In this document: positions 24,233-50,113 of the stretch, in pieces
Layout of the letters: every line of letters begins with the position of its first letter
Position numbering within the stretch: position 1 is the first letter of the stretch
Assembly (NCBI RefSeq): GCF_023167545.1
Contig: NZ_AP014647.1
Location: 930,001-994,000 of the forward strand
DNA: 64,000 bases
DNA from: Streptococcus constellatus subsp. constellatus
Lineage (GTDB): Bacteria; Bacillota; Bacilli; Lactobacillales; Streptococcaceae
Direction: 5' to 3'
Translations under genes and position numbers: made by a program
Notes under the pieces: model-generated
Told to the model about the DNA's origin: nothing
Seen by the model: only the letters and a program-made list of their open reading frames with translations
The model's database searches: none

Positions 24233-24304
24233 TGTCCCCTGCCGGAATCGAACCAGCAACTACTCCTTAGGAGGGAGTTGTTATATCCATTGAACTAAGG
24301 GGAC
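24233..24304 (-). tRNA. tRNA-Arg (anticodon CCU)
   Basis: The 72-base minus-strand sequence folds as a cloverleaf. Acceptor stem GTCCCCT / AGGGGAC with discriminator A; anticodon stem ACTCC / GGAGT with loop CTCCTAA, anticodon CCT; T arm with GGTTCGATTCC. No CCA is encoded. It decodes the rare AGG codon. It lies between the rplS terminator and its own terminator. Confidence 0.95.
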
Positions 24305-32639: not shown

Positions 32640-33332
<693 letters not shown>

Positions 33333-48212: not shown

Positions 48213-48239
48213 ATCCCGAAAATTGTTTCGGGATTTTTT
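48213..48239 (+). terminator. Terminator of the glutamine ABC operon
   Basis: ATCCCGAAA / TTTCGGGAT, 9 bp with a 4-base loop, followed by TTTTT, 10 bases past the glnQ stop. Confidence 0.9.
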
Positions 48240-48287: not shown

Positions 48288-48316
48288 TTGACATTAAATC
48301 ACTTTTTTGTTATATT
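48288..48316 (+). promoter_or_regulatory. Promoter of the ABC-F gene
   Basis: TTGACA (48288-48293), 17 bases, TATATT (48311-48316). The transcript would begin near 48323, 25 bases before the leader ORF and about 255 bases before the ABC-F start. Confidence 0.8.
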
Positions 48317-48347
48317 AAAATCAATGAAATTCGGAGGTAAGGAGCTT

Positions 48348-48371
48348 ATGTACAAAAAATCTATTGCTTAA
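48348..48371 (+). CDS. Leader peptide MYKKSIA of the ABC-F attenuator
   Basis: A seven-codon ORF with an unusually strong ribosome site (GGAGGTAAGGAG, 48333-48344) four bases before its ATG. It is too short for ordinary gene calls, but its position between a consensus promoter and an attenuator, and the pairing of its own codons with downstream RNA, support a regulatory role. Stalling or slow translation here, for example with a ribosome-targeting antibiotic, would open the downstream hairpin. Confidence 0.75.
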   Translation: MYKKSIA

Positions 48372-48536
48372 AGGAAACTTTATCTAGTAGATTTTTTGTT
48401 GTGCTCTTGCTCATTTTCAAAGAAGACATTTTTACTTCTCAAGGCTAAATATATCCATCGCAAACTACTTGCTTTGCAATATTTGTTAGCAACCCAAAAG
48501 CAAAAACAGCTCTACTAGGTAAATAGGGCTGTTTTT
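48352..48536 (+). promoter_or_regulatory. Ribosome-mediated transcription attenuator upstream of the ABC-F gene
   Basis: Three mutually exclusive pairings are visible. (1) Anti-antiterminator: 48352-48363, inside the leader ORF, with 48388-48399; 12 perfect pairs, capped by a TAAAG-GAAA-CTTTA hairpin (48369-48382). (2) Antiterminator: 48381-48391 (TATCTAGTAGA) with 48511-48521 (TCTACTAGGTA); 11 pairs, one wobble. (3) Terminator: 48502-48514 with 48524-48536, 13 pairs with one wobble, ending in a T run. A ribosome held on the leader ORF breaks (1), allows (2) and prevents (3), so the gene is read. Confidence 0.8.
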
Positions 48537-48577
48537 CTTAGCTCTAAAATGACAATGAACATCATAAGGAGACATAT

Positions 48578-50113
48578 ATGCTACAAATTAGACATTTAAC
48601 CATTACACATTTAAAAGACTTCAAAAACATGGTTAGTGATTTATCACTCACTGTTAATACAAGTGATAAAATTGCCATTATTGGAGAAGAAGGAAATGGA
48701 AAATCTACTCTTCTCAAACTACTCATGAATGACGCACTTGTTTCAGACTATGTTAGTTATACAGGAGAGATTCAAAAAAGCTATAATCGTTATGCTTATT
48801 TGCCGCAAACTTTACCTGAAAATGAAAGAAAATTCTCTCTCAACGACTATTTTTTTGGAGATTTGGAAGTAGACCTAGATTACAACAAACTTTATCGCTT
48901 CGCTCAAGAATTAAAGTTTGACAGTCAACGTTTTACTAGCCAGCAAACCTTAGCCTCTTTATCTGGTGGCGAACTATTAAAAATTCAACTTTTAAAAATC
49001 CTCTCTACTGATTGGGACCTTCTCTTTTTAGATGAGCCTTCTAATGATTTAGATCTAGATACTCTGATATGGCTAGAAAATTTTCTCCAAAATACACCTC
49101 GAACAGTTATCTTCGTTTCCCATGATGAAAGTCTTTTGAGCCATGTAGCGACAAAAATCATTCATTTGGAATTGATTAAGAAAAAACAGGAAGCTCGGAC
49201 AACTGTGAGGAATCTGGATTATGAGAATTATAGCCAAGAGAGACAGGAGACATTTAAAAAGCAAACAAAAGATGCAAAAAAAGAACGAGAAGAATATCAA
49301 AAAGCAATGGCAAAACACCAGCGAGTCAAACAAAGTGTGGAGCATGTCTTGCGTCATACTCATGACAGCACAGCTGGTAGATTACTAGCCAAAAAAATGA
49401 AAAATATTCTCTCACAAGAAAAACGTTTTAATCGAGAAGCCACTAAAATGACAGAGTTACCAACACAAGCAGATGCTATCATTCTGGAATTTCCTACCAT
49501 TTCCCCTCTCCCATCGACAAAAAGAGTACTTACTATCCAACAGATGTGTTTAAAGATAGAAGAGCATATCTTAGTACGAAATATTAACTTTGAACTTTTG
49601 GGACAGGAGAAGATTGGGATTATTGGTAAAAATGGTATCGGTAAATCTACTTTTCTCAAAGAACTGCGACATCTACTGAAAGAAAAGAGAAGCATTACAC
49701 TAGGATATATGCCTCAAAACTATCATGATATTTTAAACGAAGCCGATTCTCCAATAGATTTTCTAACATCTACAGGAGAGGCTATTGAGCGAGAAAAAAT
49801 CCTCACACACCTAGCCAGTCTACAATTCACACGCAATGAAGTACATCATCCCATTTCTCAACTGTCTGGTGGACAAAAGGCCAAATTGCTGCTGCTAAAA
49901 ATGGTATTAGATCAGGCAAATGTCTTGTTATTAGATGAGCCAACACGTAACTTTTCTCCTACTTCGCAGCCACAAATTCGAAAACTTTTTACAAGCTATA
50001 CCGGAGCTTTTATTACTGTTTCTCATGACCGTACTTTTCTAAAAGAAGTCTGTCAGAAAATCTACTACCTGACTGAAACTGGACTAGAGCAAGTAAGGAA
50101 AGAACAATTATAA
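48578..50113 (+). CDS. ABC-F family ATPase, probable ribosome-protection (antibiotic resistance) type
   Basis: A soluble 511-residue protein with two NBDs and no membrane segments. NBD1: Walker A GEEGNGKST (36-44), signature SLSGGE (127-132), Walker B LFLDEPSNDLD. A long basic linker (about 200-315), the likely P-site-reaching arm, follows. NBD2: Walker A GKNGIGKST (350-358), QLSGGQ (428-433), Walker B LLLDEPTRNFSPTS, which replaces the usual DEPTNHLD, and H-switch VSHDRTF. The leader-peptide attenuator is typical of inducible resistance ABC-F genes, so protection against a ribosome-binding antibiotic is inferred; the drug class is unknown. AAGGAG precedes the ATG. Confidence 0.88.
   Translation: MLQIRHLTITHLKDFKNMVSDLSLTVNTSDKIAIIGEEGNGKSTLLKLLMNDALVSDYVSYTGEIQKSYNRYAYLPQTLPENERKFSLNDYFFGDLEVDLDYNKLYRFAQELKFDSQRFTSQQTLASLSGGELLKIQLLKILSTDWDLLFLDEPSNDLDLDTLIWLENFLQNTPRTVIFVSHDESLLSHVATKIIHLELIKKKQEARTTVRNLDYENYSQERQETFKKQTKDAKKEREEYQKAMAKHQRVKQSVEHVLRHTHDSTAGRLLAKKMKNILSQEKRFNREATKMTELPTQADAIILEFPTISPLPSTKRVLTIQQMCLKIEEHILVRNINFELLGQEKIGIIGKNGIGKSTFLKELRHLLKEKRSITLGYMPQNYHDILNEADSPIDFLTSTGEAIEREKILTHLASLQFTRNEVHHPISQLSGGQKAKLLLLKMVLDQANVLLLDEPTRNFSPTSQPQIRKLFTSYTGAFITVSHDRTFLKEVCQKIYYLTETGLEQVRKEQL

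What the first reader, a model, noticed from the sequence alone, without database searches (positions are those of the whole stretch)
48288..48577. Complete ribosome-mediated attenuator with a new leader peptide (MYKKSIA) controlling an ABC-F gene
Seen directly: consensus promoter; strong ribosome site; 7-codon ORF; a 12-bp pairing between the leader codons (48352-48363) and 48388-48399; an 11-bp pairing between 48381-48391 and 48511-48521; and a 13-bp terminator (48502-48536) whose left arm is the same 48511 segment. The first and second pairings exclude each other, as do the second and third. Known: inducible ABC-F resistance genes (vmlR, msrD, lmo0919 and others) use leader peptides or attenuators. 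Inference: drug-stalled ribosomes on MYKKSIA switch the gene on.
Basis: partly seen in the sequence, partly recalled or inferred. Interest (0 to 1): 0.88.

Follow-up and report, generated by a model that had tools for sequence, protein, structure and literature searches.

The report
Tiny-ORF drug-sensing switch for ABC-F
In front of a streptococcal ABC-F gene lies a conserved RNA leader with a seven-codon mini-gene, a terminator and mutually exclusive hairpins; it likely acts as a switch by which drug-stalled ribosomes turn the gene on, and it resembles a pneumococcal RNA that has been listed as a stand-alone small RNA, F43.

Summary
The leader folds far better than shuffles (z -4.46, 0 of 200).

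The element is not unique. A mini-ORF with the same Shine-Dalgarno motif precedes the orthologous ABC-F gene in 133 of 135 streptococcal loci scanned; the other two sit at contig ends. A terminator was found in 105 of 108 distinct leaders. The arms change sequence between lineages yet keep pairing.

The peptide is not conserved: MNN, MKN, MRN, MDK, MDNNK and others; MYKKSIA was seen only in the anginosus group. So the sensor is most likely a ribosome parked on the first codons, not an arrest peptide. In folding models such a ribosome frees the antiterminator before the terminator is complete (probability 0.00 to 0.91); with the whole terminator present, the terminator wins again.

The leader matches Rfam SpF43 (pneumococcal sRNA F43, between SP1281 and SP1282) over its full length but below the curated cut-off. 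F43 is best read as the leader of an ABC-F gene. The design is that of Bacillus vmlR: a new member of a known kind. Drug induction is untested; pleuromutilins, lincosamides and streptogramin A are the predicted inducers.

The parts
48213..48234 (+). Terminator-like stem after the upstream amino-acid ABC transporter operon; the ABC-F gene is likely its own unit
   Evidence: scan, 9-bp stem plus T run; 1 found, 0.9 expected in shuffles
48288..48316 (+). Promoter TTGACA-N17-TATATT with extended -10
   Evidence: 11 of 12 matches; predicted start 48323 is where position 1 of the SpF43 model aligns
48333..48344 (+). Tandem Shine-Dalgarno motif GGAGGTAAGGAG of the mini-ORF
   Evidence: GAGGTA invariant in 13 of 13 aligned leaders
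48348..48371 (+). Leader mini-ORF MYKKSIA, stop TAA
   Evidence: a mini-ORF at this place in 133 of 135 loci, peptide variable
48352..48399 (+). Anti-antiterminator hairpin: arms 48352-48366/48385-48399, inner stem 48369-48373/48378-48382
48323..48420 (+). Region matching Rfam RF02436 (SpF43_sRNA) over model 1-99, 31.8 bits, E 7.8e-5, below gathering 70
48379..48391 (+). Antiterminator arm (5' side)
   Evidence: 13 standard pairs with 48511-48523
48511..48523 (+). Antiterminator arm (3' side), inside the terminator's left arm and loop
48502..48536 (+). Intrinsic terminator stem (13 bp, loop 9), its outer five pairs A-U, followed by CTT
   Evidence: a terminator found automatically in 105 of 108 distinct leaders
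48566..48571 (+). Shine-Dalgarno AAGGAG of the ABC-F gene
   Evidence: sequence
48578..50113 (+). ABC-F protein, 511 aa, two ABC domains; below the curated cut-offs of the named resistance ABC-F families among the 25 best NCBIfam matches shown

Best explanation
This is a leader RNA that contains a very short ORF and arms that can form mutually exclusive hairpin, terminator and antiterminator helices, and it likely works as a ribosome-mediated transcription attenuator that switches on the ABC-F gene when drugs freeze ribosomes on the first codons of the ORF. Off state (predicted): with no parked ribosome the ORF strand pairs with 48385-48399, the hairpin holds the antiterminator arm, the terminator forms, and a short RNA results. 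On state (predicted): a ribosome parked at codons 1-6 covers the ORF strand, 48379-48391 pairs with 48511-48523 as soon as that is made, the terminator cannot close, and polymerase reads into the ABC-F gene. Shown here: the elements, their conservation, the compensating changes, and the computed folds with and without a block. Inferred: translation of the ORF, the stall, read-through. Predicted inducers are drugs that stop the first peptide bonds (pleuromutilins, lincosamides, streptogramin A), because many relatives have only three codons. The pneumococcal sRNA F43 is best read as the same leader upstream of SP_1282 (inferred from position and family).
For: A mini-ORF behind the same ribosome-site motif at 133 of 135 loci, 11 peptides. 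RF02436 in 163 of 284 Streptococcus genomes and 0 of 14 controls; 162 of those 163 also have the ABC-F, the exception being G073 (from the lists); one match only in the window's own genome, which has five ABC-Fs. Of the 30 best RF02436 loci, 29 have the ABC-F start 185-385 nt after the ORF start; the other ends at a contig edge. Arms rewritten but still pairing: S. suis W153 GATTGG/CCAATC, S. massiliensis, S. moroccensis, G160, G029. Twelve lineages picked by hand: cognate antiterminator -14.0 against -10.4 kcal/mol non-cognate, 2 of 100,000 permutations as good; ORF hairpin -24.4 against -19.9, 0 of 100,000. Gap-free class, 112 of 135 loci, 11 distinct combinations: no non-standard pair at 10 positions, both-sided changes at two (the search pattern fixed or limited the letters). 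Window: nascent antiterminator 0.00 free, 0.91 with a ribosome on codon 1; of 15 slid 30-nt blocks the two lying over the ORF give 0.91 and 0.94, the other 13 at most 0.06. Nascent antiterminator pairs rise by 5 or more in 103 of 105 leaders. Precedent: vmlR, in which MIN, MDN, MDK and MRK variants are all induced by lincomycin; MDK is also an S. suis leader here.
Against: No expression, translation or drug data for this gene. With the complete terminator including its A/U extension, a ribosome on codon 1 leaves the terminator favoured at equilibrium (T 0.81, AT 0.16), and, with trimmed terminators, the terminator probability falls by 0.3 or more in only 60 of 105 leaders; the switch therefore depends on folding order. 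The cognate antiterminator partner is the best one in its row in only 5 of 12 lineages (ORF hairpin 4 of 12), and ranks 11th for G029. In a few leaders (L006, L080, L124, L131, L136) the best duplex found lay elsewhere than the expected arm. RNAalifold on a MAFFT alignment of 13 diverse leaders found no pair. The window scores below RF02436's gathering score. F43 is 99 nt and its counterpart ends at 48420, before the terminator, so it is not simply the terminated transcript. Outside close Streptococcus the automated test gave 5 of 16, with 7 more lacking a detected terminator.
Confidence: 0.84

Rival explanations
1. MYKKSIA is a drug-specific arrest peptide, as MsrDL (MYLIFM) is for macrolides; its amino-acid sequence sets the inducer.
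For: The peptide is identical in all 7 loci (5 genomes) that have it, with one silent codon difference. MsrD in streptococci is regulated by a 6-residue peptide that stalls at its stop codon. Folding still gives nascent antiterminator 0.83 and 0.61 with the ribosome on codons 6 and 7.
Against: Other streptococci have unrelated 3-5 residue peptides in the same structure before the orthologous gene. [quoted passage not shown]
Confidence: 0.08
2. The leader senses starvation for an amino acid (Asn or Lys codons), as classical operon attenuators do.
For: Asn is frequent: MNN 71 and MKN 18 of 133 loci, also MRN, MDNNK and others.
Against: No codon after AUG is shared: MDK, MDTDK and MYKKSIA have no Asn, MNN and MRN no Lys. 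The gene is an ABC-F, not a biosynthetic gene.
Confidence: 0.04
3. The RNA is a trans-acting small RNA, as F43 has been catalogued.
For: F43 was found among <200-nt RNAs and marked as confirmed by Northern, and a 2025 study lists it as putative sRNA M52, in 385 of 385 strains.
Against: It holds a strong ribosome site and a short ORF, lies just upstream of one gene in 29 of the 30 best matches, and its hairpin arm can pair with that gene's terminator. F43 has no virulence entry in the table read.
Confidence: 0.03
4. It is a plain upstream terminator with fortuitous pairings; read-through is constant.
For: At equilibrium with the complete terminator the terminator wins in the window for every ribosome position tried, and with trimmed terminators its probability falls by less than 0.3 in 45 of 105 leaders.
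Against: Cognate pairing is kept through changes of sequence and the mini-ORF and its tandem Shine-Dalgarno are kept.
Confidence: 0.01

Closest known systems
vmlR leader, Bacillus subtilis (PMC9226507; passages and section 22 read)
   Same: ORF of 3 codons inside an anti-antiterminator hairpin, antiterminator, intrinsic terminator, ABC-F gene; peptide can be MIN, MDN, MDK or MRK
   Different: Other genus; protein similar only at about E 1e-42 to the entry 6ha8, which I recall to be VmlR; no second hairpin hiding the ABC-F ribosome site was looked for here; induction not tested here
cplR leader, Clostridioides difficile, and uORF4u consensuses for LsaA (MAGN) and VmlR2 (MK[L/Q]) (PMC10201436; passages read)
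   Same: Mini-ORFs (MR[I/M]) upstream of ABC-F genes, transcription and translation attenuation
   Different: 'Streptococcus' occurs 0 times in its main text, so no streptococcal leader is described there
lmo0919/rli53, Listeria (one passage of the review PMC11550727; original paper not held, recalled)
   Same: Lincomycin-dependent antitermination upstream of lmo0919
   Different: Different RNA; sequence not compared here
msrD leader MsrDL, streptococci (PMC10314930; passages read)
   Same: Streptococcal ABC-F gene under ribosome-mediated attenuation
   Different: Specific arrest peptide MYLIFM for macrolides; here the peptide varies freely
Rfam RF02436 SpF43_sRNA / F43 (PMC3395615, passages and part 1 of section 6 read; PMC12323649, passages read)
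   Same: Same position before the orthologous ABC-F, full-length model match, same ribosome site and a short ORF in the consensus
   Different: Catalogued as an sRNA, no ORF or downstream target given in the passages seen; the window is below its cut-off

Membership tests
Mini-uORF transcription attenuators of ABC-F genes (vmlR type) | Very short ORF with strong ribosome site, promoter-proximal | tested here: met
   133 of 135 loci; translation itself not tested
Mini-uORF transcription attenuators of ABC-F genes (vmlR type) | ORF embedded in a hairpin that holds the antiterminator arm | tested here: met
   by folding
Mini-uORF transcription attenuators of ABC-F genes (vmlR type) | Intrinsic terminator before the gene, exclusive with an antiterminator | tested here: met
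   by sequence and folding; terminator found in 105 of 108 leaders; termination itself not tested
Mini-uORF transcription attenuators of ABC-F genes (vmlR type) | Ribosome stalling by a cognate drug induces the gene | not testable with these tools
   only modelled as a steric block
Rfam RF02436 SpF43_sRNA | Score at or above the gathering score of 70 bits | tested here: not met
   window 31.8 bits over 1-99; 125 of 284 Streptococcus genomes exceed it
Named resistance ABC-F families (Vga, Sal, Msr, CplR, Lsa, OptrA) | NCBIfam curated cut-off | tested here: not met
   209/725, 196/725, 196/680, 194/780, 172/750, 169/1450 bits (25 best of 182 families shown)
NF000355 ribosomal protection-like ABC-F | Curated cut-off of 380 bits | tested here: not met
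   308.7 bits, best family
ABC-F superfamily | Two ABC domains in one chain, no membrane domain | tested here: met
   PF00005 in two stretches, no membrane family among the 19 listed; the Pfam linker PF12848 is not detected in it
Arrest-peptide attenuators (MsrDL type) | Conserved leader peptide sequence | tested here: not met
   11 peptides among 133 loci

The most novel reading that the evidence does not exclude
Rfam SpF43 is not a small RNA at all: it is the sensor half of a core start-codon-occupancy switch found throughout Streptococcus and in other Lactobacillales, reporting any drug that freezes ribosomes on the first codons, whatever the peptide, and it controls an intrinsic ABC-F outside the named resistance families. 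In the anginosus group the ORF grew from three to seven codons, adding a later stall window with Ser and Ala, which would let the same switch also hear context-dependent drugs such as phenicols or oxazolidinones.
Probability: 0.3. Interest if true: 0.75.

Novelty: new member of a known kind. Interest (0 to 1): 0.6.

Why it matters
If true, most streptococci carry a chromosomal, drug-inducible ribosome-protection-like gene that is normally silent and so could escape routine tests, and a catalogued pneumococcal sRNA family should be re-filed as a cis-acting leader. The free variation of the peptide in a fixed structure is a natural experiment on what such leaders sense: ribosome position rather than peptide.

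Tried and rejected
Rfam at gathering score found nothing here; only the permissive search showed SpF43. RNAalifold on a MAFFT alignment of 13 diverse leaders gave no pairs; I put this down to insertions and register shifts and used cognate/non-cognate duplex energies instead. A second alignment of 21 closer leaders was made but not scored. Three of 108 leaders had no terminator found (L013, L105, L137); L105 and L137 show one beyond my mis-called start; L013 was not looked at again. Two 'MET' ORFs (L086, L087) were regex errors; the ORF is MNN, counted so, but these two, L054 and L116 were not in the 108 leaders. Of the 52 loci, the eight distant ones (L045-L052, 22-28% identity) were left out of all counts. 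Outside close Streptococcus, ORFs of 3-4 codons (three with GTG or TTG starts) were picked by eye in 22 of 23 loci, one has 14 codons; my terminator finder failed in 7 of 23 and the block test gave 5 of 16, so I claim no more than likeness there. srpA of S. suis (now Vga(H)) was considered and set aside: the S. suis orthologue's only families at E <= 1e-60 are NF000355 (295 of 380 bits) and CplR (230 of 780), no Vga.

Not in print, as far as searched: the listings (searches listed 15 of 35, 12 of 15 and 8 of 178 papers) and the passages read showed no paper linking F43 or SP_1282 to an attenuator. PMC10942264 and PMC11701578 do not hold the terms asked for; PMC6296669 does not hold SP_1282. 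The library holds open-licence papers only; two papers I asked for by id are not held.

Full report
What is there. The window lies in a 1.9-Mb genome close to Streptococcus intermedius (ABC-F 97% identical to L001). After a terminator-like stem behind an amino-acid ABC transporter operon comes a strong promoter, a leader of about 250 nt, and an ABC-F gene of 511 codons. The leader has a tandem Shine-Dalgarno motif, the ORF MYKKSIA, a long hairpin that contains the ORF, a spacer, and an intrinsic terminator. The antiterminator extends to 13 bp. In the predicted fold the ORF hairpin has a 15-bp stem and an inner stem with a GAAA loop, which together hold 11 of the 13 antiterminator nucleotides, and an outer part that pairs the ribosome site with 48403-48412. 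The leader folds at -58.1 kcal/mol against -40.0 +/- 4.05 for shuffles, z -4.46, none of 200 as stable.

Relatives. A protein search of genome contigs gave 52 loci, 44 of them streptococcal and close; the eight distant ones were left out. Rfam at a permissive threshold showed that 48323-48420 matches SpF43_sRNA over its whole length, 31.8 bits, E 7.8e-5, below the gathering score of 70. That family is in 163 of 284 Streptococcus genomes, over cut-off in 125, and in 0 of 14 control genomes. The ABC-F is in 247 of 284 at E <= 1e-100. Of the 163, 162 also have the ABC-F; G073 does not. I then fetched 35 ABC-F loci that SpF43 had missed, plus five others. Over all 135 loci scanned (some are the same genome twice), a mini-ORF behind the same kind of ribosome site was found in 133; L054 ends at a contig edge and shows MNN by eye, L116 has only 252 nt upstream. 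The scan asked for a short ORF after the motif; a long or missing ORF would have shown as a miss. The peptides are MNN 71, MKN 18, MDNNK 17, MYKKSIA 7, MDSNK 6, MDNKK 4, MDK 3, MRN 3, MDNNE 2, MYNNK 1, MDTDK 1; stop TAA 131, TAG 2. MYKKSIA was seen in five genomes: the window's, S. intermedius, S. anginosus and two unnamed ones with 87-90% identical ABC-F. It looks like a lengthened version of the three-codon ORF; that direction is inferred.

Pairing is kept while sequence changes. Terminators were found in 105 of 108 distinct leaders; for most of these the best duplex of the terminator's left arm is the expected antiterminator arm, but not for L006, L080, L124, L131 and L136. Some lineages have rewritten both arms. 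For 12 lineages picked by hand the cognate antiterminator duplex averages -14.0 kcal/mol against -10.4 for non-cognate pairs, 2 of 100,000 permutations as good; the ORF hairpin -24.4 against -19.9, none as good; but the cognate is the best partner in its row in only 5 and 4 of 12. In 112 of 135 loci the arms align without gaps: 11 combinations, no non-standard pair at 10 positions, both-sided changes at two (the regular expression fixed or limited the letters). RNAalifold on a simple alignment of 13 leaders found nothing.

A model of the switch. I treated a parked ribosome as 30 nt that cannot pair (-12 to +17 of the P-site codon; the vmlR toeprint is +16). In the window the free RNA has terminator 0.98, antiterminator 0.00. 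With the ribosome on codon 1 and the RNA made only as far as 48523, the antiterminator reaches 0.91; codons 2-5 give 0.91-0.94, codon 6 0.83, codon 7 0.61, and the stop codon in the P site 0.00. Of 15 slid 30-nt blocks, the two over the ORF give 0.91 and 0.94, the other 13 at most 0.06. When the whole terminator with its A/U extension is present the terminator is again favoured (0.81 to 0.16), so the order of synthesis must matter; with the terminator trimmed of that extension the balance is reversed (T 0.16). Across leaders the nascent antiterminator gains 5 or more pairs in 103 of 105, and the terminator probability falls by 0.3 or more in 60 of 105.

What it most likely does. Many relatives have only three codons, with no codon after AUG shared by all, so the common signal is a ribosome held at or next to the start codon. 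Pleuromutilins hold pneumococcal ribosomes at start codons (passages of PMC9426450), and PMC10201436 says that short ORFs of this kind are likely stalled by pleuromutilin, lincosamide, streptogramin A and nucleoside drugs. In B. subtilis vmlR the same layout was tested: deleting the ORF hairpin abolishes expression and induction, disrupting the terminator makes expression constitutive, and the peptides MIN, MDN, MDK and MRK all serve. I therefore infer the same mechanism here. That macrolides need longer peptides, and that phenicols and oxazolidinones prefer Ala, Ser or Thr before the stall, is recalled, not from a call.

The protein. It has two ABC domains, and its best match among solved structures is 6ha8, named ExpZ there and recalled by me as VmlR, E 8.7e-43. 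It is below the curated cut-off of the named resistance families among the 25 best of 182 shown, and of NF000355, as are orthologues from S. suis and S. parasanguinis for NF000355. The genome has four other ABC-Fs with the Pfam linker, and only this locus matches the leader family. What it protects against is unknown.

F43. Mann and colleagues found F43 as a 99-nt RNA in TIGR4 between SP1281 and SP1282, all on one strand, marked as confirmed by Northern, and deleted it. A 2025 survey lists it as candidate sRNA M52, present in 385 of 385 strains, with no sORF noted. SP_1282 is called an ABC transporter ATP-binding protein in PMC4243769 (one passage). Of the 30 best matches to the family here, 29 lie just before the ABC-F. 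I conclude that F43 is the leader of that gene; I did not read the TIGR4 sequence itself. The 3' end of F43 lies before the terminator, so the 99-nt species may be a processed remnant; that is not explained.

Wider spread. In 246 genomes of the order, 47 have the ABC-F at E <= 1e-105, 18 of them outside Streptococcus. I looked upstream in those 18 and in five distant streptococci: short ORFs such as MYTI, MDTI, MIKF, MRI and MKL, chosen by eye, in 22 of 23. My automatic test there was inconclusive, 5 of 16 with 7 more lacking a detected terminator.

Verdict. A real, conserved element; the mechanism is well supported by comparison and modelling but untested; new member of a known kind, with a useful re-reading of a catalogued small RNA.

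Noticed in passing
L071, L078 and some other mitis-group loci, between the ORF hairpin and the terminator: Extra structured stretches of about 100-200 nt between the hairpin and the terminator; they look like BOX-type repeats (recalled, not tested), yet the antiterminator arms still match.
   Followed up: partly
window 48333-48344 and the 13 leaders: A tandem Shine-Dalgarno motif (GGAGGTA then GGAG) before the mini-ORF is the best-conserved stretch of the aligned leaders; why two sites are kept is unexplained.
   Followed up: no
L199 (G028, distant Streptococcus): The short-ORF place holds a 14-codon frame instead of 3-7 codons.
   Followed up: no
window 33178-33313 (-) and 24233-24304 (-): A PyrR-binding element and a tRNA gene, ordinary.
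   Followed up: no
window 48578-50113: The ABC-F lacks a detectable Pfam linker domain PF12848, unlike the four other ABC-Fs of the genome.
   Followed up: partly
RF02436 matches in several genomes (e.g. G092, G126, G114, G236): Weak second matches on the opposite strand at the same place, presumably from the near-palindromic hairpin.
   Followed up: no
G073: Has an RF02436 match but no ABC-F at E <= 1e-100.
   Followed up: no
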